Source: Prauserella shujinwangii
GTDB lineage: Bacteria > Actinomycetota > Actinomycetes > Mycobacteriales > Pseudonocardiaceae
Length of the DNA: 64,000 nucleotides
Reading direction: 5' to 3'
NCBI RefSeq assembly: GCF_003001955.1
Contig: NZ_PVNH01000005.1
Location: 372,001 to 436,000, forward strand
Part shown: one piece after another, positions 21,584 to 58,531 of the stretch
Numbering within the stretch: position 1 is the stretch's first letter
Layout of the letters: each line of letters begins with the position of its first letter
The notes under the pieces: generated by a model
Told to the model about the DNA's origin: nothing
The model's input: the letters and a program-made list of their open reading frames with translations, nothing else
Databases searched by the model: none
Position numbers and translations under genes: made by a program

Positions 21584-22948
21584 ATGGACACAGGCGATGC
21601 CAAGCAGGCTCGCATCCCGGCGAAGACCTGGGAAGACCGCGAGATGCGCGACGCGCTGGCCGCTCGCAACATCAGCGAGGTCTACCGCCAGCTGCGCAAG
21701 CACGGCGTCTCCCAGCGCCAGATCGCCGCGATGACCGGCCAGTCCCAGTCCGAGGTGTCGGAGATCCTCAAGGGTCGTCAGGTCATGGCCTACGACGTGC
21801 TCTCGCGGATCTCCGATGGCCTGGGGATTCCCCGCGGGTACATGGGCCTCGCCTACGACGAGGCGACGGAGATTCAGGTCGTCGGCGCCGCCGACGAGCA
21901 GCAGGCTGAGGAGGACGAGTCCGTGAAACGGCGGAAGTTCCTCGCACACGCCGCGCAGGTCACGATGGGGGCGGCGGTCTTCGGGCCGACGTCCGAGGCC
22001 TGGGCGGCGAGCCCCGCGAGGACCCCCGCACCTGGGCGGATCGGCATGACGGATGTCCGGCAGGTGGAAGCGGCGACGAGAGCCCTCCGGGCGCTCGACT
22101 ACCAGTACGGCGGTGGCTTCTGCCGCGACGCCGTGGTCGCCCAGCTGTCCTGGGGGCAGCAGATGCTGCAGGCGAGCGGCACCGAGCCGGTCCGCACGCG
22201 GCTGTACGTGGCGCTGGCCGACCTGCACAGCCTCGCCGGCTGGACGTCCTTCGACATCGGGCTGATCGACTCGGCGCGCGGCCACTTCGCGCACGCGCTG
22301 GACCTGGCCAAACAGGGCGAGAACCACCCGCTCGTCGCCAACATCCTGTACCGCATGGGCCGTGTCTACCTGCACCAGGAGGCGCCGAACGACGCCCTCA
22401 AGCTGTTCCAGCTCGGGCAGATCGCCGCCCAGGAGTCCGGTTCGGAGCTCGCCGTCGCGGTGCTCTGCGCCAACGAGGCCTGGGCCTACGCGATGATGGG
22501 CAACGCCGAGCAGGCGGTGAAGCTGCTGGGCCGGACGCGGGACGAGTTCCAGCGCGCCGACCTGGCGAACGCCGAGTCCTGGGTGCGGTTCTTCACCGAG
22601 ACCGACGTCTACGCGATGGTCGGCACCGTGCACACGGCGCTCGCCCAGCACGACGCGACGCACACCAAGTACGCGATCCCGGCGCTGAACAAGGCCGTGG
22701 ACTCCTACGGCGACGACATGGCCCGCAGCAAGACGTTCAACCTCAGCGCGCTGGCGACGAACCACCTGCTCGAGGGCGACATCGACTACGGGGCCAAGAT
22801 CGGCGGCAAGGCGCTCGACTGCGCCGAGGGGCTGAAGTCGGGCCGGATCAAGGACCGCATGCGCCCGCTCCGCGAGGAGGCCGAGCGCCGTGCCAACAAC
22901 GCCGACGCGCGGGAGCTCGTCGAGCGGATGAATGCCTTCTTCACGTAG
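21584..22948 (+). CDS. XRE-TPR transcriptional regulator with an internal twin-arginine-like segment
   Basis: 454 residues. An XRE HTH spans residues 33-85 (VYRQLRKHGVSQRQIAAMTG, SQSEVSEILKGRQ). Residues 115-142 read KRRKFLAHAAQVTMGAAVFG, then a small polar stretch and AWAAS, like a Tat signal peptide placed in the middle of the protein. From about residue 160 to the end are TPR-like helical repeats (ADLHSLAGWTSFDIG, YRMGRVYLHQEAPNDALKLF, NEAWAYAMMGNAEQAVKLL). Such proteins are widespread actinomycete regulators of development or metabolism, the TPR half binding peptide or small ligand. The downstream kinase gene follows after 10 nt. Confidence 0.85.
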   Translation: MDTGDAKQARIPAKTWEDREMRDALAARNISEVYRQLRKHGVSQRQIAAMTGQSQSEVSEILKGRQVMAYDVLSRISDGLGIPRGYMGLAYDEATEIQVVGAADEQQAEEDESVKRRKFLAHAAQVTMGAAVFGPTSEAWAASPARTPAPGRIGMTDVRQVEAATRALRALDYQYGGGFCRDAVVAQLSWGQQMLQASGTEPVRTRLYVALADLHSLAGWTSFDIGLIDSARGHFAHALDLAKQGENHPLVANILYRMGRVYLHQEAPNDALKLFQLGQIAAQESGSELAVAVLCANEAWAYAMMGNAEQAVKLLGRTRDEFQRADLANAESWVRFFTETDVYAMVGTVHTALAQHDATHTKYAIPALNKAVDSYGDDMARSKTFNLSALATNHLLEGDIDYGAKIGGKALDCAEGLKSGRIKDRMRPLREEAERRANNADARELVERMNAFFT

Positions 22949-22958
22949 GAGCGGGCAC

Positions 22959-23864
22959 ATGGGGGGCACCATCTCGCTGGACGGCCGGTTCACCAGGGAC
23001 AAGCTCGACCGGGTGCTCCACCAGACGTGTGCCCTGCTCGGCCTGCGGGCGGAGGGGGCCGAGCTGCTGCGCTTCACCAACAACGCGGTGTACTCGCTGG
23101 CCACCGACCCGGTGGTGGTGCGCATCGTCGGCTCGCGGAAGCTGCGGCACCGGGCTCACCGGGTTGTCCGGATCGCGCGGTACTTCGCCCGTGCCGGAGT
23201 GCCCGCGATCCGCCTGCTCGACGGGGTGCACCAGCCGATCGAGATCGGCGAGCACGTCGTCACGGTGTGGCAGCGGGTGCCGAAGCCGGGACGGCGGGCC
23301 ACCCCGGCGGAGCTCGCGAGCCTGTTGCGGCAGGTCCACGCGCTGCCACCGCTGGCCGACATCGGCGAGTGGGCGCCGCTGGACGACGTCCGTGCCAGGG
23401 TGGCCGATGCCGAGGAGCTCTCCGCCGACGACCGCCGTTTCCTGCTGCGCCGCTGCGCCGAGGTCGAGGCCGCGCTCGACGAGCTCGACTTCCCGCTGGC
23501 CAGGGGCCTCGTGCACGGTGACGCCCACCCCGGCAACGTCATCGTGGGCCCGGACGGCCCGGTGCTGTGCGACTTCGACTCGTCGTGCGCGGGCCCGCCG
23601 GAGTGGGACCTGACGCCGCTCGCGGTGGGCCGGGAGCGCTTCGGCGACCCCCGGACCTGGTACGACTCGCTGGCCAGGGCCTATGGGTTCGACGTGACGA
23701 CGTGGTCCGGTTTCGCGGTGCTCAGGGCGGCGAGGGAGCTCAAGCTGACGACGAGCGTCCTGCCGATCCTGCGCAGCCACCCCTCGGTGCGGCACGAACT
23801 GCACCGCAGGCTCGCCGACCTGCGCGCGGGCCGGACCGGTTCCCGGTGGGTCCGGTACCGCTGA
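22959..23864 (+). CDS. Aminoglycoside-phosphotransferase-like kinase
   Basis: 301 residues of the APH/choline kinase fold. The catalytic loop HGDAHPGN (186-193) and the metal-binding DFD (205-207) are intact; the N-terminal lobe carries VVVRIVGSRKLRHRAHRV. Start ATG 22959 follows TAGGAGCGGG. The gene is coupled to the XRE-TPR regulator (10-nt gap), so it may phosphorylate a small metabolite connected with that regulator. It should not be read as resistance without evidence. Confidence 0.82.
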   Translation: MGGTISLDGRFTRDKLDRVLHQTCALLGLRAEGAELLRFTNNAVYSLATDPVVVRIVGSRKLRHRAHRVVRIARYFARAGVPAIRLLDGVHQPIEIGEHVVTVWQRVPKPGRRATPAELASLLRQVHALPPLADIGEWAPLDDVRARVADAEELSADDRRFLLRRCAEVEAALDELDFPLARGLVHGDAHPGNVIVGPDGPVLCDFDSSCAGPPEWDLTPLAVGRERFGDPRTWYDSLARAYGFDVTTWSGFAVLRAARELKLTTSVLPILRSHPSVRHELHRRLADLRAGRTGSRWVRYR

Positions 23865-46652: not shown

Positions 46653-47852
46653 TCAGGACTCGCGGTACGTCGGTGGCGCGTGCTCGATCTGGTCACCCAG
46701 CAGCGACTCGAACGTCTGCTGCACGTCGTTCTTGTCCGGACCGTAGACCTCGACGATCACCACGCGCTTGTAGAGCACGTAGACGGCCCGGAAGACACTG
46801 TCCGACTCGTCACTGGCGGCACCGAAGACTTGCACCCCCTGCAGCGAGAGCTCCGGGGCCGCCGGAATACCACCCTCCTGCTGGACGACCGCGTACTGCT
46901 GCGCCACCTCGATGGCCGCGTTCTCGTCGGAGACCTCGAGCGAGTACAGGCCGATGGTGGAATCGCCATCCTTCGACGCCTTGAGCAGGCCCTCGTTCAG
47001 ATCACCGTCTTCGAGCGCCGCGATCACCGGTTCGGCGAGGAGCTTGTTCTCCCGCAGGGTGGCGAGGTCGAAGGCGCCACCACCGTCCCGGGTCTGGCCA
47101 GGAGGGTCGATGAGTGCCGCGTCGTTGTCGCTGGGCACCGCCTTGGTGGGAGGAGGCTCCGGCAGAGCGCTGCTGGACGGGCTGGGTGCGGCCTGTGATT
47201 GCTGGCTGGGTTGCGGTCCGGGGCCTGCCTGGTTCTCACCGTCGCCCTTGATGAACAGGAACCAGACCAGCACGCTCAACCCGGCCACGATTACCACGCC
47301 GAGGACGGAGAAGAGCACTTTCCGGCCGCTGCCTGAGGTCGACGTGGTCTCGAAGGTCTCGGGACCCTGGCTCACCCAGTCGGTGTGCGTCTGCGGGGCG
47401 ATCGGAGGAAAGTCGGTACCGCCCCAGGGGGGACTTGGGTCGTCCTGCGGTGCGTTCCACGGCTGTTGACCCGGCTGCGCGAATCCGGCAGGAGGGGAGC
47501 CTGCGTAGGACGAATGCGGCTGGGGGAAGCCGCCCGCGGGCGACGAATGCGGCGCTTGGGTCTGCCAGTTGGGCACGACCTGGGTGCGCTCACCGCCCGC
47601 GTCACCCGGAGGCACGGCCTGCGTGGCCTCGTTCTGCTGGTACTGACCTTGCTGCTGGGATGCGCCGGGCTGCCCGGATACCGGCTCGATCACCTGTGTC
47701 GACTCCGCGTTGCCGGTGCCTTGCGGTTGCTGCTCCGCTGGTGCCACGGCAGAAGACAGGACCTGGTCTCGGCGAGTCCGGTACTCGTCGGCAGACAGGC
47801 GGCCGGACGCGAGTTCCTCGTCCAGCTTGCGCAATTCTTCCTGCCAGGTCAC
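46653..47852 (-). CDS. Single-pass membrane protein with SHOCT-like N terminus, paralogue A
   Basis: 399 residues. Residues 1-32 (MTWQEELRKLDEELASGRLS, then ADEYRTRRDQVL) are a SHOCT-like helical hairpin. A 140-residue Gln/Pro/Gly-rich cytoplasmic tail carries three T-Q-hydrophobic motifs (STQVIEP, ATQAVPP, RTQVVPN), then one transmembrane helix (178-201) and a 190-residue outer domain with an NTF2/lipoprotein-like look (VFRAVYVLYKRVVIVEVYG). No signal cleavage. GTG start with GGGGGG upstream. A paralogue at 55231-56298 bounds the other end of the glycan locus. Function unknown. Confidence 0.7.
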   Translation of the reverse strand: MTWQEELRKLDEELASGRLSADEYRTRRDQVLSSAVAPAEQQPQGTGNAESTQVIEPVSGQPGASQQQGQYQQNEATQAVPPGDAGGERTQVVPNWQTQAPHSSPAGGFPQPHSSYAGSPPAGFAQPGQQPWNAPQDDPSPPWGGTDFPPIAPQTHTDWVSQGPETFETTSTSGSGRKVLFSVLGVVIVAGLSVLVWFLFIKGDGENQAGPGPQPSQQSQAAPSPSSSALPEPPPTKAVPSDNDAALIDPPGQTRDGGGAFDLATLRENKLLAEPVIAALEDGDLNEGLLKASKDGDSTIGLYSLEVSDENAAIEVAQQYAVVQQEGGIPAAPELSLQGVQVFGAASDESDSVFRAVYVLYKRVVIVEVYGPDKNDVQQTFESLLGDQIEHAPPTYRES

Positions 47853-48042: not shown

Positions 48043-49356
48043 TTACCTTGGGTTGCGCGCCAGGACGTCCGCGATCCGACCGATGACGTCGTCTCGCAGC
48101 AGTGCGCTCCCGCCGCCGGCCACGATCCGTTCCACGAACTCGACCACGACGACGTCCCGATCCACGAGCATGTCGGCGAGCCGGTCCGGCGACGCTTCGG
48201 CGACCGTGTCGACGTGCGCGATCATGAGATCGGGCACGGCCGCCGCCAGGAAGGGCGTCGCGAACTGCGTGAACGAGTCCGCGATCACCCCGACGCTGTC
48301 CTCCGTGGTTCCGGTCGTCCCCTGCAGGCTGGGCTGGCGCACGCGGAGGGGTGTGCGGAAGTCGCTCGCGATGTAGCGGGTGCGGTCGGCACTGCCGTCA
48401 GGGGCAAGTGCATAGGTGTGCAGCCGTCGCTCGCCGGACTGGCCGAGCAGGACGAGCAGGTCGGCTGGCCATGGGCGGAATCCGCTGGCCGACACTTTCC
48501 AGCTGGACGTACTGCCGGGCTCGATTCGTTCCAGGACGGCCTTGGTCATCGTCAACCCGCCCGCGAACGTCCAGTGGGAGTCGCGAGGGTCGTAGAGCGG
48601 TCGGCCCAGCCTGGCGGCGCTTTCGGCCAGCGCGGGCCGGAGGTCGATGGCACCGGCTTCCGTGGGGATCCGCTGCCAGAACGCGCGTGCCCGCCGTTGG
48701 GAGCAGTCCTTGCCGACGTAGTCGTCGGGCAGGTGCTCGGGTACGACCGTCGACTTGTCCGGGGCCACCACCAGCTCGAACCGGCGCCCCGAGGACTCGA
48801 CCGCGCGCCTCAGTTCGTTGAGGGCGGCGACGACCTGATCGACATCCATGGCCGCCAGGCACTTGCCGGTGATGTCTTCGCCCAGGTAGAGCCAGCCGTT
48901 CTTGCCGGTGATCACCTTGGGGAACAACTCGGCGGGCGGTATGTCACTCGGTTGGTCCTGGTGTGGACTCACGCCGACAGTGCCGCCGCGGCTTTGGGTT
49001 CCCGCAGCCGGCGGATCGCCGAAGACACCTGTGCTGATGCCGCTCGCCGCGCGGATGCCTGCCTCCCGCAGCGGCAGGTGGTCGGTCGCCCACTTCGAGA
49101 GCCCGGTGAAGAATGACCAGCCGGACCCCGGGTCGGGGAACTCGTGCAGGGCCCGGTTCTCGAAAGGTTCGGGCCGGGCGCCGAGAACGAACGCGATCGC
49201 GGGGGCAAGGAAGAAAGCGAGAGCGCAGGTCAACGCGGTCCGCTGGCGTGGACTGTGCCGCGGCCGGTAGAGATTGTGCTCGTTCGGCAACCACGACTCG
49301 GGAGTCGGCGGAAGCGCGTTCTCGGCCGGTGGCCGAGGGCCGACAGGGGGAGGCAC
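48043..49356 (-). CDS. AlgX/AlgJ-like SGNH polysaccharide O-acetyltransferase
   Basis: 437 residues from GTG 49356, whose TACGAT -10 (minus strand, 49368-49363) is 6 nt upstream, a leaderless start. A Pro-rich cytoplasmic segment, one membrane helix (about 40-60), then an extracytoplasmic SGNH-like domain: PGSGWSFFTG, FPKVITGKNGWLYLGED, VVAPDKSTVVPEHLP (197-210), catalytic D259-x-H261 in RDSHWTFAGG, and the probable nucleophile in VIADSFTQF. AlgX/AlgJ proteins O-acetylate exopolysaccharide with an MBOAT partner; here the membrane acyltransferase at 54123 may supply acetyl groups. Confidence 0.8.
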   Translation of the reverse strand: MPPPVGPRPPAENALPPTPESWLPNEHNLYRPRHSPRQRTALTCALAFFLAPAIAFVLGARPEPFENRALHEFPDPGSGWSFFTGLSKWATDHLPLREAGIRAASGISTGVFGDPPAAGTQSRGGTVGVSPHQDQPSDIPPAELFPKVITGKNGWLYLGEDITGKCLAAMDVDQVVAALNELRRAVESSGRRFELVVAPDKSTVVPEHLPDDYVGKDCSQRRARAFWQRIPTEAGAIDLRPALAESAARLGRPLYDPRDSHWTFAGGLTMTKAVLERIEPGSTSSWKVSASGFRPWPADLLVLLGQSGERRLHTYALAPDGSADRTRYIASDFRTPLRVRQPSLQGTTGTTEDSVGVIADSFTQFATPFLAAAVPDLMIAHVDTVAEASPDRLADMLVDRDVVVVEFVERIVAGGGSALLRDDVIGRIADVLARNPR

Positions 49357-49441
49357 GTGCGTATCGTAGCGGCCGCGATACGGGCCTATGGCCAGTTCGG
49401 GCAATCGTCCGGCCGAAGCGTGTTCCCGGGAGGCGCGAGGA

Positions 49442-50863
49442 ATGGAACTGGGGTGGCGTGTGGACTACGCGGAGCGGATCGCCGCGGAGCATGCGACGTT
49501 CGGCGACCAGGAGGACCTGCACGGGGACCTGCCCGAGTCGGCGCATTTCTGGTCCGAGCGGTTCATGTTGCCGAAGTTGAACGCGCTCGGAGTGACGAGC
49601 GTCGAGCAGCTCATCGTCGACGAGATCGGGCGTCGTGCGGTCGGGTCGCCCGGTGACGTCGTCGTGCTGTCCCTGGGAAGCGGGAACGGCGACCTCGAAC
49701 TCGGCTGGTTGCGCTCGCTGGCCGACCGTGGTGTGACCAATGTGCGGATGCGTCTTCTCGAGTTCAATCCCCGGATGCAGGAGCGCGCCGCGCAGGCCGC
49801 CGACCGGCTGGGTCTTTCGGACCGAGTGGAACTCGTGGTGGCCGACTTCAACACCTGGCGGGCGGATGCCCGGCACGATGTCGTCGTCGCGTTCGAGGCG
49901 CTGCACCACGTCGTCGACCTGGAACACCTGTACGGCCAGATCCGCGACAGCCTGACGGTCGACGGCGTTGTCGTGGTCCACGACATGATTGGACGAAACG
50001 GGCATCGGCGTTGGCCGGAGGCGCTCGAAGTCATCGAACGGATCTGGGCGACCCTGCCTCCGGAACTCCGGCGGAACTCGATCACCGGGGAGGTCGACGA
50101 CCACTACGACGATCTCGACTGCGCTGTCGACGGTTTCGAGGGGATCAGGGCGCAGGATGTCCTGCCCGTCCTGCTCGACCACCTGCACCCGAGCCTTTTC
50201 CTGGCGTGCGGCAACGTGATTGATCCGTTCGTCGAGCGGATCTACGGCCACAACTTCGACATGGAGAGCGCGGCGCACCGGGATCTGATCGAGCGGATCG
50301 GAACGCTCGACGACGCGCTGATCGACCTCGGTGTCGTGACCCCGACCCGGCTGACGGCGCTCTTCCACCGGGAGCCACATCGGTTGCGCGTACACGGCAT
50401 GAGGACGCCCGAGCGCTGCATTCGGCGCACCTCAGTGATCGACCCCGCCGGTCGCGTGTCGTTCGACCCGCACGTGGCCGACAGGTCGCGGATCGTTCAG
50501 GGCGCCGGTGTCGCAGTGGGGAGGACCAACGGCATCTTCGACGATCAGTGGGTGGGCCGCAGCGCGGAGATCGTCGTGTTCCCGACCGCGGATGTCGGCC
50601 GCCTCGAGCTGACGACCTACCTTCCGGACTGGATGCCGAGGACGGGAAACCTCACCATTGAGGTCGATGGCGAGTCCGTCGGCACGGTCGAGCCGAAGTA
50701 CGGCCTGTGCACGAACAACGTTCCGGTCGATCTGCCCGCCCGCCGTGTCCGGCGGCTCGCTCTCCTCGCCGACTGGAGCGTCAACCAGGACTCGGCCGGC
50801 CTCGGGCAGGACCGGCGGACGCTGTCCTATGTTCTGACCTGCGTCGCGTTCCGGGAAAAATGA
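49442..50863 (+). CDS. SAM-dependent methyltransferase with C-terminal beta domain
   Basis: 473 residues. The SAM-binding loop VVVLSLGSGNGDLELGW (74-90) and VAFEALHHVVDLEHLY are class I Rossmann methyltransferase motifs. Residues 320-473 form a separate domain (RIVQGAGVAVGRTNGIFDDQW, LELTTYLPDWMPRTGNLTIEV, VPVDLPARRVRRLALLADWS) of beta-sandwich character, perhaps sugar-binding. ATG 49442 follows GGCGCGAGGA. Probably methylates the surface glycan or its precursor. It ends at a 9-bp hairpin before the multidomain gene. Confidence 0.8.
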   Translation: MELGWRVDYAERIAAEHATFGDQEDLHGDLPESAHFWSERFMLPKLNALGVTSVEQLIVDEIGRRAVGSPGDVVVLSLGSGNGDLELGWLRSLADRGVTNVRMRLLEFNPRMQERAAQAADRLGLSDRVELVVADFNTWRADARHDVVVAFEALHHVVDLEHLYGQIRDSLTVDGVVVVHDMIGRNGHRRWPEALEVIERIWATLPPELRRNSITGEVDDHYDDLDCAVDGFEGIRAQDVLPVLLDHLHPSLFLACGNVIDPFVERIYGHNFDMESAAHRDLIERIGTLDDALIDLGVVTPTRLTALFHREPHRLRVHGMRTPERCIRRTSVIDPAGRVSFDPHVADRSRIVQGAGVAVGRTNGIFDDQWVGRSAEIVVFPTADVGRLELTTYLPDWMPRTGNLTIEVDGESVGTVEPKYGLCTNNVPVDLPARRVRRLALLADWSVNQDSAGLGQDRRTLSYVLTCVAFREK

Positions 50864-50906: not shown

Positions 50907-53900
50907 ATGAGTACGGGTGCCTCGCACGAGCGGCTGATCGAGTGGACGGGCGAGCGGTGTGTGCCGTGGGCGGACGACCTGCAAGTGATCTACGAGCACT
51001 ACCATCGGTACGCGTTCGCACTGCGCTATACCGCCGGTAAGCGGGTACTCGACCTGGCGAGTGGTGAGGGTTTCGGTGCTGCTCTCCTCGCCACCGGAGC
51101 CGCCGAGGTGGTCGGTATCGACATCGATCCGGTGACGGTGGAGCACGCCCGCCGTCGCTATCCGCTTCCGAACCTCCGGTTCGACGCCGGTTCGATCGTG
51201 GATCCGGACGCACTCGGTGCGGACGAGCCGTTCGACGTCATCACCTGTTTCGAGGCGATCGAACATGTCGAGGAACACGACAGCTTCATGCGGCTCGTGC
51301 GGAACCGGCTCGCACCCGGTGGGGTGCTGCTGTGCAGCACGCCGGACACCGACGTCTACACCCATGACCACGGCAACGAGAACCCGTACCATGTCCGCGA
51401 GTTGTCGGAGGAGGCGTTCCGGCAGCTCCTCGCCAGCGACTTCGCGCACGTCGCGATACTCCGGCAGAACGTCGCGGTCGGCTCCGTGATCCACGATGGT
51501 TCAGCCGGCACGGAGACGCATACGCTGCGACGAGCTGACGAGGACACCTGGGCGGTCGAGCCGGGGGCCCCGCACACCTACCTGCTGGGAATCGCGTCTG
51601 CGGAGCCGTTCGAGGTCCCGGCGATGTCCGCACTGCTCGACCCGCAGCTCTCCCTTGTCGCGCGGGCGGTGGAAGCCGGTCGCCGCGCCGAGGCCGCCGA
51701 CCAGTGGGAAGCCGCCGCCGAGCTGGCGGAACGCCTCCGCCGTGCTTCGGAAGGCGAGCACCGCGCGACAACAGAGCTCCGGGAGGTGCGGGACCGGGAG
51801 CGGCAAGCTGTCGAGGAGCGGGATTCGGCCGTCGATGCCGTGCGCGGGATGCGCGCGGAGCTGGACAACGCGGTCAGCGAGGTCGACCGGCTGCGAACGA
51901 GGGCCGACCACGACACCGCCCGGTTGAACTGGCTTTCGGAGAAGAACACCGCGCTGCGGCAAGCTGTACACGAGTTCGCGACCGAGAATTCACGACTGCG
52001 TGCCGAGCATTCGGCACTGGCGCAGCGCCTCGTCGGTCGTTACCGCACCACGGTGGAACGGCTGGCGCCCAGAGGCACCAGACGACGTGACCTCTATGAG
52101 ACGGCGATGGGCCGGTCCGAGGTGCAGCCGGCCCCGGAAATTCCGGGCCCGGTCGCGGTCACGACGAGCGAACACCCGCTCGTCACGGTCGTGATACCCA
52201 CCTACGGCAACTGGCCGTTCACCCGGCGGTGCCTCGAGTCGATCGAGATCCACCAGCCCGTGACGCCGTTCGAGGTAATCGTGGTCGACGACTCGTCGGC
52301 CGACGGCTCCGCCGAAATCGTCGCGCAGTGTGCTGGGGTGCGGTTGGTGCGCACCCCGAGAAACCTGGGATTCGTCGGTGCCTGCAACCACGGTGCCTCG
52401 TACGCGCGCGGCGACCTGCTCTTCTTTCTGAACAACGACACCGAGGTCCAGCCAGGCTGGCTGGACACTCTGGTCCGGGTCAGCGAGGACAGGCCCGATG
52501 TCGGCCTCGTCGGTTCGAAACTGGTCTATCCGGACGGCCGTCTGCAGGAATGCGGTGGGATCGTGTGGTCCGACGGTACCGGCTGGAACTACGGCCGTGG
52601 CCAGTCACCGGACGACCCGCGCTACAGGTCCCTGCGCGATGTGGACTACTGCTCGGGGGCGGCGTTGCTGGTCCGGCGCAGCCTCTTCGAACAGATCGGC
52701 GGATTCGACGAACGTTACGCGCCCGCGTACTACGAGGACACCGATCTCGCCTTCGCGGTACGAGCACGCGGATATCGCACGGTCGTGCAACCCGAGTCGG
52801 TGGTCGTGCATCACGAGGGTGTATCCAACGGCACCGACGTCGCGTCTGGGATCAAACGGCACCAAGAGCTCAACCGCGGTGTCTTCGCCGACAAGTGGGC
52901 TGATGCCCTGTCGGAACACCTTCCGGAAGCGAGCCCGCTCAACGTCTGGCTGACAGGCACCGGCACGGCGAACGGCCACCGCGGTGGCTTTGTGCTCGTC
53001 GCGGATCACCAGGTGCCCCGGCCAGACCACGACTCCGGTTCGGTGCGCATGACGCGGATTCTCCGCCTGCTCGCCGAAGGAAAGCAGCGGGTGGTGTTCT
53101 TCCCCATGAACGGGGCGGTACCGGAACCGTACTCGTCGGAGCTGTACCGTGCGGGGATCACGGTGGTGCCGGGGCAGGAGCAGCAAGCCGAGTTCCTCCG
53201 CGACGCCGGTGAGGAAGTCCGTCTTGCCTTGCTCTCCCGCCCCCAGGTGGCCTGGCAGTTGCTCGAGCAGATCCGCGAGTTTGCGCCACGGTGCCTCGTC
53301 GCGTACGACACCGTCGATCTGCACTTCCTGCGACTGGAACGGCAGGCCGGCGTGGCGGCGGAGCTGGGAGTGGAAGACGAACAGCAGCGGCTGCTCAAGC
53401 GTGCCCACGCCCTGCGCCAGTTGGAGCTCGGACTGGTCAGGACTGCCGACGTCACGTTGACCGTCTCGGATGTCGAGCAGCGGCTGTTGAACGAGCTGGT
53501 CCCGGCCGCGGACGTCCGGGTGCTGTCGAACATCCACGACACCGAGTTGTCCTCATCTGACGTCGGGGGGCGGTCCGGGATCCTGTTCGTCGGCGGGTTC
53601 GACCACATTCCCAATCGGGACGCGGCCGACTGGCTCGCCGGGGAGATCATGCCGCTGATCAGGGAGGTGTTTCCGGAGGAAACCGCGCACATCGTCGGCA
53701 GCAATCCGCCGCCGGAGACGCTCGCGCTGGCCGAAGAGAACGTCGTCGTGCACGGCTGGGTGGAGGATCTGACAGCTCTGTACCGCGACGTCCGCGTCGT
53801 GGTGGCGCCGTTGCGGTTCGGTGCCGGTGTCAAGGGCAAGGTCGGCGAAGCCCTCGCCCGCGGCGTTCCGGTGGTCGCCACGTCCGTCGCCGTCGAGGGC

Positions 53901-54101
53901 ATGTGCCTGACCGACGGCAAGGACGTGCTGGTGGCCGACACGAATGCCGACTTCGCCAAGCAAGTCGTCACGCTACTCCAGGATGACGACCTCTGGCGAA
54001 AGCTGTCCGAAGCCGGCAAAGCCGCGGTCAGCAGGCGGTTTGGTCCCGAAGTCGCCGGCAGGACTCTTGCCGAGCTACTGGAACGGACGCACCGGCACTA
54101 G
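50907..54101 (+). CDS. Methyltransferase-coiled coil-GT2-GT4 fusion, putative self-capping glycan polymerase
   Basis: 1064 residues, cytoplasmic. Domain 1 (about 10-250) is a SAM methyltransferase: VLDLASGEGFGAALLATGAA, FEAIEHVEEHDSFM. Residues 255-395 are a long charged coiled coil (AERLRRASEGEHRATTELRE, VDAVRGMRAELDNAVSEVDR). Domain 2 (about 423-670) is GT2: VVIPTYGNW, FFLNNDTEV (about 508) and YYEDTDLAFAVRARGYR (about 609). Domain 3 (about 700-1060) is GT4-type: GILFVGGFDHIPNRDAADWL and PLRFGAGVKGKVGEALARGV. Two transferases plus a methyltransferase joined by a coiled coil is the layout of WsaE/WbdD-like chain-length control. TACTGT 7 nt before the ATG indicates leaderless mRNA. Confidence 0.85.
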   Translation: MSTGASHERLIEWTGERCVPWADDLQVIYEHYHRYAFALRYTAGKRVLDLASGEGFGAALLATGAAEVVGIDIDPVTVEHARRRYPLPNLRFDAGSIVDPDALGADEPFDVITCFEAIEHVEEHDSFMRLVRNRLAPGGVLLCSTPDTDVYTHDHGNENPYHVRELSEEAFRQLLASDFAHVAILRQNVAVGSVIHDGSAGTETHTLRRADEDTWAVEPGAPHTYLLGIASAEPFEVPAMSALLDPQLSLVARAVEAGRRAEAADQWEAAAELAERLRRASEGEHRATTELREVRDRERQAVEERDSAVDAVRGMRAELDNAVSEVDRLRTRADHDTARLNWLSEKNTALRQAVHEFATENSRLRAEHSALAQRLVGRYRTTVERLAPRGTRRRDLYETAMGRSEVQPAPEIPGPVAVTTSEHPLVTVVIPTYGNWPFTRRCLESIEIHQPVTPFEVIVVDDSSADGSAEIVAQCAGVRLVRTPRNLGFVGACNHGASYARGDLLFFLNNDTEVQPGWLDTLVRVSEDRPDVGLVGSKLVYPDGRLQECGGIVWSDGTGWNYGRGQSPDDPRYRSLRDVDYCSGAALLVRRSLFEQIGGFDERYAPAYYEDTDLAFAVRARGYRTVVQPESVVVHHEGVSNGTDVASGIKRHQELNRGVFADKWADALSEHLPEASPLNVWLTGTGTANGHRGGFVLVADHQVPRPDHDSGSVRMTRILRLLAEGKQRVVFFPMNGAVPEPYSSELYRAGITVVPGQEQQAEFLRDAGEEVRLALLSRPQVAWQLLEQIREFAPRCLVAYDTVDLHFLRLERQAGVAAELGVEDEQQRLLKRAHALRQLELGLVRTADVTLTVSDVEQRLLNELVPAADVRVLSNIHDTELSSSDVGGRSGILFVGGFDHIPNRDAADWLAGEIMPLIREVFPEETAHIVGSNPPPETLALAEENVVVHGWVEDLTALYRDVRVVVAPLRFGAGVKGKVGEALARGVPVVATSVAVEGMCLTDGKDVLVADTNADFAKQVVTLLQDDDLWRKLSEAGKAAVSRRFGPEVAGRTLAELLERTHRH

Positions 54102-54122: not shown

Positions 54123-55289
54123 GTGGGAGGAGCCCACAGCAAGCGATCGACAACGCTCAAGAGTCATGCCGATCCGAACACCGGATTCGCATGGCTGCGG
54201 CTCGTTGGCGCCACGATCGTCGTCATCGACCACAGCGCTCCTCTGGTGCACCCGGAACGACTGACCGTGTTTCCGGAGAGCTGGCGGATGTCGCCCGGCT
54301 ATCTCGCCCTCATGGCCTTCTTCGCCATGAGCGGTTACCAGATCAGCGACAGCTGGGAGCGGGACCCCTCATGGTGGCGGTTCTCCGCCCGGAGGCTGCT
54401 GCGGATCCTTCCGCCACTGTTGGTTGTCGTTCTCTGCACGGTGTTCGTCATCGGACCGCTGTGTACCATGCTGACGGTTCCCGGGTACTTCTCCCATCCG
54501 CAGACCTGGGACTACCTCGTCGGCACGTCGTCGCTGTTCTTCCTGCAGCATGCCCTGCCCGGGGTCTTCGCGGGCAATCCCTACCCGTGGTCGGTCAACG
54601 GGTCTCTGTGGACGTTGCCGATGGAGTTCGTGGGCTATGTGGTGGTCCTGCTGGTGGGTGTGCTCGTCGCGGCCGGTTCGAGCCGGCTGATCCTGTTCGT
54701 CCTGCTGGCGGGCCTCGTGCTGCTGGACAGCCACTCGCGGGCCACGTTCGGGTATCACGGCGACGCCGGGTCCCTGTTCGAGATTCCGGTGGGATCGCTC
54801 GTCGCGTTTCTCGTTCCCTTCGTGCTGGGAATGGTGATGCACACTTTCCGCCGGAACATCCCGCTGCGGCCCTGGCTGGCCTGCACGCTGCTCGGTGTAT
54901 GGCTTGCGGCGCATTGGACGCCACTCGACCGCTATCTGCTCGCCGTGATGGCAAGCTATGGAGCGATTGTGCTGGCGCACCACTGGCCACGGCGGTGGGA
55001 AGTGGACGGTCGGCTCGTCTACGGCAGCTACGGGATGTACATCTGGGCCTTCCCGGTGCAGCAATTGATCATCCTGGCCGGTGTGGACAACCAATGGTGG
55101 CTCATGGCTATGGCGGTGCCTGCGGCATACCTTTGCGGTGTCGTCTCGTGGTGCCTCGTGGAGGAGCCCACGCAGCGGCTACGCCGCCACCTGAAGGGGC
55201 GTTCGGTCTTCGACCAGCCCACGGTCCGGTTCACGCCGGTGGCAGCGCCACGTGCAGAGCGGCGATCGTTTCGGCCGACAGCCGGTTGA
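54123..55289 (+). CDS. Membrane acyltransferase (Acyl_transf_3, OafA-like)
   Basis: 388 residues with about ten helices. The N-terminal FAWLRLVGATIVVIDHSAP holds the conserved Arg26 and His37 of acyltransferase-3 enzymes that carry acyl groups, usually acetyl, across the membrane to glycans. Motif GSLWTLPMEFVGY (the family's W-L-E loop) and GSYGMYIWAFP are also present. GTG start follows GGGGGGAAAG, 21 nt after the fusion gene, so the two form an operon. Its last 59 nt overlap the convergent membrane-protein gene. Confidence 0.88.
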   Translation: MGGAHSKRSTTLKSHADPNTGFAWLRLVGATIVVIDHSAPLVHPERLTVFPESWRMSPGYLALMAFFAMSGYQISDSWERDPSWWRFSARRLLRILPPLLVVVLCTVFVIGPLCTMLTVPGYFSHPQTWDYLVGTSSLFFLQHALPGVFAGNPYPWSVNGSLWTLPMEFVGYVVVLLVGVLVAAGSSRLILFVLLAGLVLLDSHSRATFGYHGDAGSLFEIPVGSLVAFLVPFVLGMVMHTFRRNIPLRPWLACTLLGVWLAAHWTPLDRYLLAVMASYGAIVLAHHWPRRWEVDGRLVYGSYGMYIWAFPVQQLIILAGVDNQWWLMAMAVPAAYLCGVVSWCLVEEPTQRLRRHLKGRSVFDQPTVRFTPVAAPRAERRSFRPTAG

Positions 55290-56298
55290 GCACGGCGATG
55301 TCGCCGCCGGGCGGTTGGGACACCCAGACGTTGACGACGGCGTTGTCCGCGGCGTACCAGGTGCCGCTGAGCCTGCGACCCGCCAGTTCGCCGGTCAGTG
55401 TCTGACTCTGCCTGTGCAGGGTGAAGCCCGACTGCCGGGACACCGTTCTCATGCGTTCGGCCAGCCGTTTCGCCTCGCTACCGTCTTCCATCGGGAGGAC
55501 CAGGACGAAGTAGGCGTCCTCGCCGTCGGTCGACGCCCGGTGCACGACCTCGTGGACATCGAAGTCGTGGAAGATCTTCGCGAACTCGCGCGGGTACAGC
55601 CCCAGGTCGACCCCGGTGTCGACGGACATCGTGGAGTCGTCCGGGCTCGGCGTGCCGGGGAGCGCGGGCAGGCGGTCCTCGAGGGCGGTCTCGGACGCGG
55701 CCGACGGGGTGGCCGCCGTGGTGGTGGCCGGGCCGGAAGGGGTCCCTCCGCTCTGGCCGAGCCACCAGGCGCCGCCGACGATCATGCCGAGCACCAGCAG
55801 GACGCCGAGCGCGAGGAACAGCCACGTCGGCCTGCGGCCGCGGTCGGACGACGGTGGCCGCGGTGGGGTGGGTGGCGGGGGAGGTCCGCCACCGGGCGGC
55901 GGGACCGGGCGCATCGGCATGGTGAGCTCCGCCCGCGGCGTCCGGGTCACGTCCGGGTACGGCAGGGACTCGGTGGGCCGCTCGTCCGCGGGGCTCGGGG
56001 CGGTGGTCGGCTTGCCGTTGGCGAGCAGCCTGGCGGAGATCGACTGCTGGGGCTGAACGGGTGGTTCCGGCTGCCGGGGCTGGGCGGGCGGCTGCTCGCT
56101 GGTGCCGGTCGCGGGGTTCTCGGACTGCCACGACGACCCGCGGGGCCGTTCGTCCTGCCGGGTGGCGCGGCGGCTGGGCACGGGAAAGCCGGACTCGATG
56201 GCGAGGATCTCCTCACGCTGCCGCCGGTGCTGGTCGTGAGTGATGCGCCCCGCGGCCAGTTCGGCGTCCAGGCGGCGCAACTCGTCCTGCCACGTCAT
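55231..56298 (-). CDS. Single-pass membrane protein with SHOCT-like N terminus, paralogue B
   Basis: 355 residues. N terminus MTWQDELRRLDAELAAGRIT closely matches paralogue A at 46653-47852 (MTWQEELRKLDEELASGRLS). A Pro-rich cytoplasmic segment (PPPPPTPPRPP) leads to one helix (158-180, LFLALGVLLVLGMIVGGAWW) and a 175-residue outer domain (FDVHEVVHRASTDGEDAYFVL, GTWYAADNAVVNVWVSQ). Only the first 35 residues and the layout are conserved between the pair. Overlaps the acyltransferase 3' end by 59 nt. Function unknown. Confidence 0.7.
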   Translation of the reverse strand: MTWQDELRRLDAELAAGRITHDQHRRQREEILAIESGFPVPSRRATRQDERPRGSSWQSENPATGTSEQPPAQPRQPEPPVQPQQSISARLLANGKPTTAPSPADERPTESLPYPDVTRTPRAELTMPMRPVPPPGGGPPPPPTPPRPPSSDRGRRPTWLFLALGVLLVLGMIVGGAWWLGQSGGTPSGPATTTAATPSAASETALEDRLPALPGTPSPDDSTMSVDTGVDLGLYPREFAKIFHDFDVHEVVHRASTDGEDAYFVLVLPMEDGSEAKRLAERMRTVSRQSGFTLHRQSQTLTGELAGRRLSGTWYAADNAVVNVWVSQPPGGDIAVLNRLSAETIAALHVALPPA

Positions 56299-56389
56299 GA
56301 CGACCCCCTGACCACATGGTGCCCCGGTAGGGCTCGTACACAGTATTGCGTCACCCGGCGGAGTGGTTCCGAGTCGGTAGAGTTGGAGT

Positions 56390-57052
56390 ATGTCGTTGTT
56401 CGGTCGAGACAAGACGCGCCTGGTGTCCGCCGATGAGGCCCTGCCGGGACGTGCCGAACCGCTCGTGGTCCCCGAGCGGCACGCCGTCCACCCGGACCGG
56501 CGGATCAAGCCGCCGTTCCCGGAGGGGACGCGCACGGCCGTGTTCGGGCTCGGCTGCTTCTGGGGCGCGGAGCGGCTGTTCTGGCAGACGCCCGGCGTCC
56601 ACTCGACGGCCGTCGGCTACGCGGGCGGGCACACCCCGAACCCGACGTACGAGGAGGTGTGCACCGGGCGCACCGGGCACACCGAGGCGGTGCTGGTCGT
56701 GTACGACCCCGCCCAGGTGTCCTACGAGACGCTGCTGAAGGTGTTCTGGGAGGGCCACGACCCCACGCAGGGCATGCGGCAGGGCAACGACGTCGGCACC
56801 CAGTACCGCTCCGCGGTCTACTACGCCGACGACGAGCAGCGTGCCCAGGCCGAGGCGTCGCGCGAGGCCTTCCAGCGGGCGCTGCGCGCGGCCGGGCACG
56901 GTGCGATCACCACGGAGCTCGCACCGCTCGGCGAGTTCTACTACGCCGAGGACTACCACCAGCAGTACCTGTACAAGGTGCCGAACGGCTACTGCGGCCT
57001 CGGCGGGACCGGTGTCTCCTGCCCGGTCGGGCTGAACGTGCGCGAGTCCTGA
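56390..57052 (+). CDS. msrA: Peptide-methionine (S)-S-oxide reductase MsrA
   Basis: 220 residues. Catalytic Cys56 in [14 protein letters not shown], then [22 protein letters not shown] (in part: [15 protein letters not shown]), [10 protein letters not shown] and recycling Cys residues in [11 protein letters not shown]. Reduces the S-epimer of methionine sulfoxide in proteins using thioredoxin. TAGAGT (56378-56383) is 6 nt before the ATG: leaderless, though GGAG overlaps the gap. Full length for the family with an extended N terminus. Confidence 0.93.
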
Positions 57053-57471: not shown

Positions 57472-58077
57472 TCAGCGGAAGTTCACGTCGGCGCACGAGT
57501 AGAAGGCGTTGCCGGTGTCGGCGATGTCCCACACGGCGAAGATCAGGTGCCGCCCGCTCTTGCCGGACGGGAGCCTGCCGGAGTGGCTGACGGTGAACGG
57601 TGGGCGCTGACCACCCATGTTGACGGTCAGGAACGGGGTGAGCTCCAGCTGCGACCGGGTCAGCGGCTGGTTCGGGTTCCACCCGTTCTTGGTGACGAAG
57701 TAGCGGAACGACGTGGTCGCGTGCGCGGCCGTGAGCTTCCAGGTGAACGTGAAGTTCTGCCCGCTGTTCATCGGCGTCAGCGGCCACGGCTTGGTCGGGT
57801 CATCCAGCTGCGCGAACCGGCTGTTGCCACCCGCGCACAGCGTCCCGTCCGCGGGGCCGGCCGACGGGAAGCCCTTCGGTCCCTCGACGCTCTGCGGCTC
57901 CCACTGGATCCCGCCGCAGTCGCTGACGTTGCCCTGGGCGCAGTGCGACGAGCGGCTGGGCGGGTTCTGGGTGTACCCGTGCGCGGACGCCGAACCCTGG
58001 AGTACCAGGGGTGCCGCCAGCGGCAGCAGACCCACGGCGGCGACACCGAGTGCGCGGCGGATGCGTTGACGAAGCAT
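57472..58077 (-). CDS. AA10 lytic polysaccharide monooxygenase (chitin-active type)
   Basis: 201 residues. Signal peptide 1-32 (cleavage SASA), mature N-terminal His33 (HGYTQNPPSRSSHC) and His119 form the copper brace; ETEVN-like WEPQSVEGPKGFP, ADTGNAFYSCADVNF with the axial Phe192 complete the AA10 core. No extra chitin-binding module. Secreted, it cleaves crystalline chitin or cellulose oxidatively. DasR-box-like palindromes upstream at 58126-58141 and 58177-58192 support a chitin-regulon role. Confidence 0.9.
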   Translation of the reverse strand: MLRQRIRRALGVAAVGLLPLAAPLVLQGSASAHGYTQNPPSRSSHCAQGNVSDCGGIQWEPQSVEGPKGFPSAGPADGTLCAGGNSRFAQLDDPTKPWPLTPMNSGQNFTFTWKLTAAHATTSFRYFVTKNGWNPNQPLTRSQLELTPFLTVNMGGQRPPFTVSHSGRLPSGKSGRHLIFAVWDIADTGNAFYSCADVNFR

Positions 58078-58125
58078 CGTTACTCCTCTCGCAGACAGTG
58101 TCACCGAGTGTGAGCGATCCCTCGC

Positions 58126-58141
58126 AGTGGTGTAGACCACT
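58126..58141 (-). promoter_or_regulatory. DasR-box-like palindrome upstream of the LPMO
   Basis: AGTGGTGTAGACCACT matches the DasR-responsive element consensus ACTGGTCTAGACCACT at 14 of 16 positions, within an 18-nt inverted repeat (58125-58142). It lies 49-64 nt before the LPMO start. DasR is the GntR/HutC-family N-acetylglucosamine-responsive regulator of chitin genes in Streptomyces; relatives occur in other actinomycetes. Confidence 0.65.
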
Positions 58142-58145
58142 GACC

Positions 58146-58192
58146 GGACCAATGAGAAGCACCCGATCTTCGTCGCATTGGTCCATACCAGT
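58146..58192 (-). promoter_or_regulatory. Second inverted repeat and weaker DasR-like site
   Basis: GGACCAATG (58146-58154) and CATTGGTCC (58176-58184) are a perfect 9-bp inverted repeat, and ATTGGTCCATACCAGT (58177-58192) matches the DasR consensus at 12 of 16 positions. It could be a second, weaker regulator site for the LPMO. Confidence 0.45.
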
Positions 58193-58262
58193 GGCAAATG
58201 GAGTAATACGTTGCGCCATTCGCAACAAAAACGGCGCCCCCGATGAGGGCGCCGTGCGGAAG

Positions 58263-58335
58263 AGCGGACGACGGGACTCGAACCCGCGACCCTCACCTTG
58301 GCAAGGTGATGCGCTACCAACTGCGCTACGTCCGC
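58263..58335 (-). tRNA. tRNA-Gly (anticodon GCC)
   Basis: 73-nt cloverleaf: acceptor stem GCGGACG/CGTCCGC, D-arm GCGC with AGTTGGTA loop, anticodon arm TCACC-TTGCCAA-GGTGA with anticodon GCC, and T-arm GCGGG-TTCGAGT-CCCGT. The 3' CCA is not encoded. A TATAGA box on the minus strand (58374-58369) is a likely promoter. It is isolated, between the LPMO and sigma-factor genes, a common integration point, but no integrase or repeat is seen beside it. Confidence 0.97.
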
Positions 58336-58531
58336 ATGCGCTGCCCTTCCGGGCCGCGCATGGCACAGTCTATACACACGGCTCCCGGACTCCGCGAGCC
58401 ACCCGGAAGATGGGCTTTTGGTTACGTCGGCCTCGCAAGGGGTGACGCCACCTGGCCTACCTCCGTATGGTGTTCAACGTTCAACCGAAAGGGCTGCAGC
58501 TGACCTCGGCCCGGAGGGGGTGCCTGGCTGG

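What the first reader, a model, noticed from the sequence alone, without database searches (positions are those of the whole stretch)
50907..54101. Methyltransferase-coiled coil-GT2-GT4 fusion: candidate self-capping glycan polymerase with a built-in ruler
One 1064-residue protein joins a methyltransferase, a roughly 140-residue coiled coil, a GT2 with NNDTEV and a GT4. In WsaE (methylrhamnosyl transferases) and WbdD (coiled-coil ruler) these parts stop a growing polysaccharide at set length by methyl capping. Having all in one chain in a Gram-positive would be a compact, chain-length-setting polymerase. The neighbouring O-acetylation enzymes fit a decorated surface polymer.
Basis: partly seen in the sequence, partly recalled or inferred. 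Interest (0 to 1): 0.8.

Follow-up and report, generated by a model that had tools for sequence, protein, structure and literature searches.

The report
Self-capping glycan polymerase lacking its exporter
One actinobacterial protein joins a methyl-capping enzyme, a long helical spacer and two sugar-adding enzymes, like the known machines that build bacterial surface sugars of set length, but in this bacterial family the exporter part that normally reads the cap was not found.

Summary
In detail: the ORF at 50907-54101 encodes methyltransferase (MT), one predicted 138-residue helix, GT2 and GT4. The plan is already known. WsaE is MT plus two rhamnosyltransferases in a Gram-positive; Klebsiella WbbB and O7 ORF6 are terminator, coiled coil and two GTs.

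Homologues support the idea by context. In 18 of 80 named loci a Wzt with a cap-reading-type domain lies nearby (15 confirmed as PF14524). In 13 it ends within 30 bases of the fusion match; these include Proteobacteria, a cyanobacterium and Selenomonas.

In the window's family (Pseudonocardiaceae, inferred) the fusion matches 44 of 150 genomes, but PF14524 matches 0 of 150. Around 22 of 23 exporter-permease hits in the window's genome, the only Wzt-type ATPase is the galactan exporter, without that domain. Conexibacter, next to this clade on the tree, has Wzt near the gene.

One Amycolatopsis lineage lost the coiled coil (linker 61-65 residues, otherwise 131-195) with both GTs kept. Its MT stays constrained in six of seven members examined and looks decayed in one.

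Verdict: probably a WsaE/WbbB-type polymerase-terminator without its cap-reading exporter. Ruler function, polymer and export route are untested.

The parts
50907..54101 (+). MT - coiled coil - GT2 - GT4 fusion gene, 1064 aa (alternative start GTG 50898)
50928..51638 (+). SAM-dependent methyltransferase module, residues 8-244, with a beta-rich C-terminal part
   Evidence: Pfam; model; D49, G53, G55, D74, H120, Y151, H162 conserved in 45 of 45 actinobacterial rows
51651..52064 (+). single long helix / predicted coiled coil, residues 249-386
   Evidence: monomer, low pLDDT; home-made heptad heuristic; region 258-372 has mean pairwise identity 34%
52023..52106 (+). conserved basic segment at the end of the coiled coil (residues 373-400, ..YRxxVERxAPRGTxRR..)
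   Evidence: 67% mean pairwise identity against 34% for the coiled coil; KYRKVIER is kept in 5 of 7 distinct coiled-coil-deleted homologues
52176..52946 (+). GT2 module, residues 424-680 (D461, D462, NND 509-511, E610, D611, D613)
52968..54098 (+). GT4 (GT-B) module, residues 688-1064; first Glu of EX7E replaced by Ala973, second is Glu981
49388..50863 (+). second methyltransferase with an added C-terminal beta-strand domain; homologues also lie near the fusion in Nitrospira, Roseiarcus, a betaproteobacterium and Ca. Amunia
54123..55289 (+). AT3 O-acyltransferase (PF01757)
   Evidence: near the fusion in 32 of 47 actinobacterial loci
48043..49404 (-). AlgX-type SGNH protein (PF16822) with a possible N-terminal membrane segment (by eye)
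   Evidence: near the fusion in 20 of 47 actinobacterial loci
46653..47852 (-). protein with a weak SHOCT/DUF1707-like N-terminal match (below the Pfam cut-off), one probable membrane segment (by eye) and a Pro-rich linker; conserved neighbour
   Evidence: 33 of 45 loci
55231..56535 (-). second protein of the same general build (by eye; no Pfam match); called start probably too early
   Evidence: 18 of 45 loci

Best explanation
The protein is a polymerase-terminator of the WsaE/WbbB type. The GT2 and GT4 modules at the C-terminus add sugars in turn to a lipid-linked chain on the cytoplasmic face of the membrane. The coiled coil is proposed to hold the N-terminal methyltransferase away from them, so that only chains long enough to reach it are methylated and stop growing. 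The product is then moved out and O-acylated by the neighbouring AT3 and AlgX-type proteins. In Pseudonocardiaceae the Wzt whose extra domain reads the cap has been lost, so a capped or fixed-length glycan must leave by another route, for example the galactan Wzm-Wzt without that domain or an unknown flippase. Shown here: the module order, conserved active-site residues, the Wzt linkage in other phyla, no PF14524 match in the family sample, and coiled-coil loss in one lineage. Inferred: polymerisation, capping, length setting, sugars, the direction of the exporter change (loss) and the export route.
For: Domains and residues; one 138-residue helix between MT and GTs. A Wzt with a PF14524-type domain near the homologous gene in 18 of 80 named loci, 15 of them confirmed by Pfam's model at matching coordinates; in 13 the Wzt stop lies -30 to +12 bases from the fusion match start. 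The Pseudonocardiales clade branches next to Conexibacter, which has Wzt nearby. AT3 and AlgX-type neighbours in 32 and 20 of 47 actinobacterial loci. A separate MT protein with a coiled-coil-like tail beside GT2-GT4 in G044, and a plasmid homologue of Acidibrevibacterium with two GT2 stretches and no MT hit, resemble published module shuffling (PMC11231755).
Against: No PF14524 match in 150 of 150 family genomes searched. No exporter, initiating GT or sugar-nucleotide gene was recognised among the 28 of 51 called window genes scanned with Pfam, which cover all but one called gene from 40.9 to 64 kb. The coiled coil can be lost with GTs retained and, in six of seven members, the MT still constrained. 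The coiled-coil region varies more in length (6.8%) than any catalytic module. I have no biochemistry for any member found here; sequence homology to WsaE or WbbB themselves was not tested. The helix is low-confidence in a monomer model.
Confidence: 0.58

Rival explanations
1. It is a decorating enzyme, not a polymerase: GT2 and GT4 each add one sugar and the MT methylates it, on a lipid-linked or cell-wall acceptor made elsewhere (for instance a galactan precursor), and the coiled coil is only a scaffold or membrane tether.
For: No exporter, initiating GT or sugar-nucleotide gene was recognised among the 28 window genes scanned. PF14524 in 0 of 150 family genomes. On two plasmids a homologue has at most one other annotated glycan gene near it (the second of these lacks the MT). 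The coiled coil is dispensable in one Amycolatopsis lineage. The only Wzt-type ATPase found is the galactan exporter.
Against: Homologues in other phyla are placed right behind Wzt with PF14524, a setting known for whole polymers. Two GT modules in one chain form the polymerase in systems described in PMC11231755.
Confidence: 0.27
2. It makes a cytosolic methylated polysaccharide, in the manner of mycobacterial methylmannose polysaccharides (recalled), which need no exporter.
For: No cap-reading exporter domain found; two MTs in the locus; the methylmannose polysaccharide mannosyltransferase 7qsg_A is among the GT4 fold matches (Z 29.2, rmsd 3.0, 333 aligned).
Against: That fold match is one of many GT4 enzymes with equal or higher Z. 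The AT3 and AlgX-type neighbours act, by recalled knowledge of those families, on the outer face.
Confidence: 0.08
3. It is a polymerase-terminator as in the best explanation, but the coiled coil is a dimerisation or recruitment element and does not set length in this family. (This overlaps with the best explanation and is not exclusive of it.)
For: Seven distinct coiled-coil-deleted homologues keep GT2 and GT4 under constraint in the pairs printed, and six keep a constrained MT. The short segment after the coiled coil is better conserved than the coiled coil (67% against 34%).
Against: The other actinobacterial rows measured keep the coiled coil, with no linker between 65 and 131 residues; coiled coils set length in WbdD and WbbB (PMC11231755).
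Confidence: 0.3

Closest known systems
WsaE of Geobacillus stearothermophilus NRS 2004/3a (S-layer glycan)
   [quoted passage not shown] Gram-positive; wzm, wzt and wsaE overlap, as Wzt and the fusion gene nearly or actually do in 13 homologous loci (PMC2943079, passages seen).
   Different: WsaE works with a separate WsaF and with Wzm/Wzt; PF14524 was not found in Pseudonocardiaceae.
WbbB of Klebsiella pneumoniae O12
   Same: Terminator, coiled-coil ruler and two polymerising GTs in one chain (PMC11231755, parts of sections and passages seen).
   Different: Its terminator is a Kdo transferase, and its GTs are GT99, GT102 and GT103.
ORF6 of Klebsiella pneumoniae O7
   Same: N-terminal MT, central coiled coil, two C-terminal GT modules (PMC11231755).
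   Different: It has a kinase and a CBM-like domain between MT and coiled coil and two GT2 modules; here there is no kinase hit, and the pair is GT2 plus GT4.
WbdD of E. coli O9a / Klebsiella O3
   Same: MT joined to a coiled-coil ruler; the separate MT protein with a coiled-coil-like tail in G044 looks similar in layout.
   Different: WbdD carries no GT and has a kinase (PMC11231755).
Galactan exporter Wzm/Wzt (NF050108) with GlfT1
   Same: The only Wzt-type ATPase found around 22 of 23 ABC2_membrane hits of the window's genome.
   Different: It has no PF14524 match and is not linked to the fusion gene (nearly 100 kb away on the same contig).

Membership tests
WsaE/WbbB-type polymerase-terminator | Terminator enzyme at the N-terminus | tested here: inconclusive
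   An MT is there, at 43-170, with SAM-site residues in 45 of 45 actinobacterial rows; that it terminates chains was not testable here.
WsaE/WbbB-type polymerase-terminator | Extended coiled coil between terminator and GTs | tested here: met
   Single helix 249-386; heptad heuristic. Absent in one Amycolatopsis lineage. Oligomer not modelled.
WsaE/WbbB-type polymerase-terminator | Two GT modules that together polymerise | tested here: inconclusive
   GT2 and GT4 present with conserved residues; polymerisation not testable here.
WsaE/WbbB-type polymerase-terminator | Export by Wzm/Wzt whose C-terminal domain reads the cap | tested here: not met
   PF14524 in 0 of 150 family genomes, own included; a Wzt with such a domain lies near homologues in 18 of 80 named loci.
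WbdD | MT with kinase (O9a type), no GT in the chain | tested here: not met
   No kinase family among the Pfam hits; GT2 and GT4 in the same chain.
GT4 | GT-B fold with EX7E motif | tested here: inconclusive
   GT-B fold matches MshA 3c4q_B Z 31.3, rmsd 2.8, 330 aligned. First Glu is Ala in 44 of 45 and Thr in 1 of 45 rows; second Glu in 42 of 45, Gln in 3. WsaF also lacks the first Glu (PMC3898925).
GT2 | GT-A fold with acidic metal and catalytic residues | tested here: met
   Pfam; D461, D462, D511, E610, D611, D613 in 45 of 45 rows; Foldseek best match of the whole model 6e7i_A (ppGalNAcT2), E 1.4e-15.

The most novel reading that the evidence does not exclude
Pseudonocardiaceae build methyl-capped glycans of set length with a WsaE/WbbB-type enzyme but export them without any cap-reading Wzt, by a route not yet described. 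The family also holds a natural series (full enzyme, enzyme without ruler, enzyme without ruler and with a decayed capping domain) that separates capping, length setting and export.
Probability: 0.33. Interest if true: 0.75.

Novelty: new variant of a known kind. Interest (0 to 1): 0.52.

Why it matters
In the Klebsiella systems described in PMC11231755, only terminated chains are substrates for the ABC transporter, and a carbohydrate-binding module is attached to its nucleotide-binding protein: capping, length control and export are tied together. A whole actinobacterial family that keeps the capping polymerase and lacks that domain would show that the coupling can be undone, and would point to an unknown export step in genera such as Amycolatopsis and Saccharopolyspora. 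The coiled-coil-deleted species allow the ruler idea to be tested by comparing natural strains.

Tried and rejected
Chance or mis-called ORF: rejected. WbdD membership: rejected, no kinase hit and GTs in the chain. 'First in a Gram-positive': rejected, WsaE precedes it (PMC2943079). 'GT4 dead because the first Glu is missing': rejected by the WsaF comparison (PMC3898925). Flagellin glycosylation was considered as a context for proteobacterial homologues and dropped once the Wzt linkage appeared; it was not tested. The VIA rows shown span only the GT4 part and the Foldseek rows shown are GT2 and GT4 enzymes, so the MT fold was not compared; no fold search was made for the second MT, whose C-terminal strands remain unassigned. 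No sequence of WsaE was found to compare with; the Paenibacillus plasmid homologue is a GT2-then-MT protein without a GT4 hit, in another order.

Seven of these 80 whose match does not read through in one frame (L067, L098, L118, L126, L127, L128, L129) were left out of the tree and of alignment A2; L126, L128 and L129 still count in the neighbour searches. A2 took 43 rows chosen by me. The tree used 50 rows chosen by me: window, 20 actinobacterial loci, 27 other named loci and 2 plasmid loci. L067, L090, L097 and L118 lie on contigs under 8 kb, so missing neighbours there mean little; L115 has its upstream flank but only 1.6 kb downstream. In the neighbour counts L118 (Frankiales) stands among the 33 others. 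Of 33 loci fetched for linker lengths, L171 gave no frame under my motif filter and L182 is a contig-end fragment; 31 were measured. dN/dS was printed for 7 of 21 coiled-coil-deleted pairs. The scan for Wzt-type ATPases covered 22 of the 23 ABC2_membrane hits in 20 stretches; the hit at C7:305920 was not looked at, and a Wzt far from its permease, or one with a different reader domain, would be missed. The coiled-coil scoring is a home-made heuristic and flags stretches in the MT and GT parts too. Neighbour counts from called genes (AT3 28, AlgX-type 14, second MT 11 of 45 loci) differ from those by phmmer on all ORFs (32, 20 and 10 of 47).

Literature: searches listed no paper in the held library that by its title or abstract start treats this fusion in Pseudonocardiaceae; subscription journals are mostly missing. 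Papers as seen: PMC11231755 abstract, first parts of sections 11 and 13, and passages; PMC2943079 and PMC3898925 passages; PMC5082667 start of abstract in a listing; all others search listings only.
Full report
Observation. The ORF is real and has the order claimed: MT, long helix, GT2, GT4. The GT2 acidic residues and SAM-site residues listed under parts are conserved in 45 of 45 actinobacterial rows. In the GT4 the first Glu of EX7E is Ala973 (Ala in 44 of 45 rows, Thr in 1) and the second is Glu981 (Glu in 42 of 45 rows, Gln in 3). WsaF, an active GT4 rhamnosyltransferase, also lacks the first Glu (PMC3898925, passages).

Which organism. Several genomes of its family code f1 carry the gene on contigs with the same lengths as named records: G131 C1, 805,952 bases, Prauserella endophytica; G177 C164, 49,312 bases, Amycolatopsis thermalba; G024 C4, 1,134,480 bases, Saccharomonospora piscinae. 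I infer that f1 is Pseudonocardiaceae.

Distribution. Full-length homologues are in 11 of 36 f1 genomes of the first sample, own included. In a wider sample 44 of 150 family genomes match at E 1e-120 or better, in 16 of 46 genera; ten of these best matches cover only part of the query. The one other genome of the window's own genus in these samples (G001) has no such match.

The exporter link. With a profile built from eight Wzt C-terminal parts, 18 of 80 named loci have such a Wzt within the held flanks; none of the 47 actinobacterial loci L058-L098, L100-L104 and L112 does (three of these lie on contigs under 8 kb). Pfam's own model was run on 27 genomes or records of other homologues: 18 match PF14524, 17 over the cut-off. 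In 15 of the 18 the match falls, by coordinates, on the Wzt beside the gene; in G076, G077 and G078 it lies elsewhere. L110, L126 and L132 rest on my profile alone. Six alphaproteobacterial genomes and three plasmid records have no match. In 13 of 18 loci the Wzt stop lies -30 to +12 bases from the fusion match start, in 4 it lies 690-741 bases upstream, and in Conexibacter the Wzt starts about 1.2 kb downstream of the fusion gene (Pfam confirmation of the Conexibacter Wzt). This resembles the overlapping wzm, wzt and wsaE genes of Geobacillus (PMC2943079, passage).

Absence in this family. PF14524 is found in 0 of 150 family genomes, of which 140 are at least 90% complete and at most 5% contaminated, and in 0 of 36 in the first sample, while 10 of 24 other genomes of the order have it, so the model works in this order. 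On a 50-row tree the window and 20 other rows form a clade (100*) next to Conexibacter; the Wzt label needs 4 changes against a shuffled mean of 14.3, 0 of 500 shuffles as low (quick tree, SH-aLRT only, midpoint root). A loss in the ancestor of this clade is the simplest reading, but the tree cannot prove direction. A second clade without Wzt is alphaproteobacterial. In the window's own genome, 20 stretches covering 22 of 23 ABC2_membrane hits held one Wzt-type ATPase (signature YSTGM). It scores 462.6 bits against NF050108, the galactan exporter (cut-off 400), has no PF14524 match, and lies beside GlfT1.

Coiled coil. In 42 actinobacterial rows (45 less the three with the deletion) the region aligned to residues 258-372 is 90-119 residues long with 34% mean pairwise identity, against 64% for MT, 72% for GT2 and 63% for GT4; the segment just after it reaches 67%. 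Sequence-divergent, length-kept coiled coils can be spacers (PMC5082667, start of abstract in a listing), but the length here varies more (6.8%) than any catalytic module (0.3-2.0%), so this is weak support at best. Linkers in 15 Wzt-linked homologues run 162-330 residues.

A natural deletion. In one search, 5 of 31 measured loci are of this kind and 26 have 131-195. In the 7 of 21 pairs printed, GT2 and GT4 stay constrained (dN/dS 0.21-0.30 and 0.11-0.27). The MT gives 0.05-0.16 in the five pairs without L151 and is the most constrained module in four of them; in the two pairs with L151 it is 0.80-0.86. In L151 the SAM loop is altered, the TGER motif is absent and a stretch around D74 is missing. 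So capping can outlive the ruler, and in one species the capping domain itself looks decayed while the GTs are kept. This tells against a strict need for the ruler and gives strains in which to test it.

Module shuffling. G044, outside the family, has GT2-GT4 without an MT motif and a separate 395-residue MT protein with a coiled-coil-like tail (by eye; it aligns to residues 7-340) 1.2 kb away on the other strand. An Acidibrevibacterium plasmid protein has two GT2 stretches and a GT4 with no MT hit; its N-terminus looks GT2-like by eye. Both recall the variable module distribution reported for Klebsiella O antigens (PMC11231755).

Neighbours. AT3 lies near the fusion in 32 of 47 actinobacterial loci and 2 of 33 others; the AlgX-type protein in 20 of 47 and 0 of 33; the second MT in 10 of 47 and 4 of 33, the latter in Nitrospira, Roseiarcus, a betaproteobacterium and Ca. 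Amunia. Relatives of the AlgX-type gene are in 116 of 150 family genomes, so it is not tied to carriers; the ten closest copies outside the window (57-67% identity) all lie within about 2 kb of the fusion, and other copies sit near GT2-bearing paralogues in G020, G021, G022 and G032. A protein with SHOCT-like N-terminus and one likely membrane segment is the commonest neighbour cluster, 33 of 45 loci. These neighbours point to a product that is acylated outside the membrane (recalled knowledge of AT3 and AlgX).

What it most likely is. A WsaE/WbbB-type polymerase-terminator, working without the cap-reading exporter. Polymerisation, capping and length control are carried over from characterised systems by layout and gene context, not shown. 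Decoration of an acceptor made elsewhere is the main rival, because no exporter, initiating GT or sugar-nucleotide gene was recognised among the 28 of 51 called window genes that were scanned. Novelty lies in the missing exporter domain and the natural deletion series, not in the fusion itself.

Noticed in passing
window 57472-58377 (-): LPMO_10 (AA10) lytic polysaccharide monooxygenase, 3.4e-54; homologues lie near the fusion in 11 of 45 actinobacterial loci, the window included.
   Followed up: no
L151 (genome G139): Coiled-coil-deleted homologue whose MT module looks decayed while GT2 and GT4 remain constrained.
   Followed up: partly
L050 7883-13184 (genome G044): Split system: GT2-GT4 protein and a separate MT protein with coiled-coil-like tail near each other.
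   Followed up: partly
L057 5485-9093 (Acidibrevibacterium plasmid, 16 kb): Homologue with two GT2 stretches and GT4 but no MT hit; the only glycan gene annotated on this small plasmid.
   Followed up: partly
L106, L113, L137 near the fusion: GHMP kinase, SIS isomerase or nucleotidyltransferase genes that look like heptose-nucleotide synthesis (Pfam families; the pathway name is recalled), hinting at the sugar in those species.
   Followed up: no
window 49388-50863 (+): The second MT has a C-terminal beta-strand domain (about residues 372-472 of the model) that its Nitrospira, Roseiarcus, betaproteobacterial and Ca. Amunia relatives lack in the alignment.
   Followed up: partly
window 22932-23864 (+): APH-family phosphotransferase (PF01636) beside a TPR/HTH regulator.
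   Followed up: no
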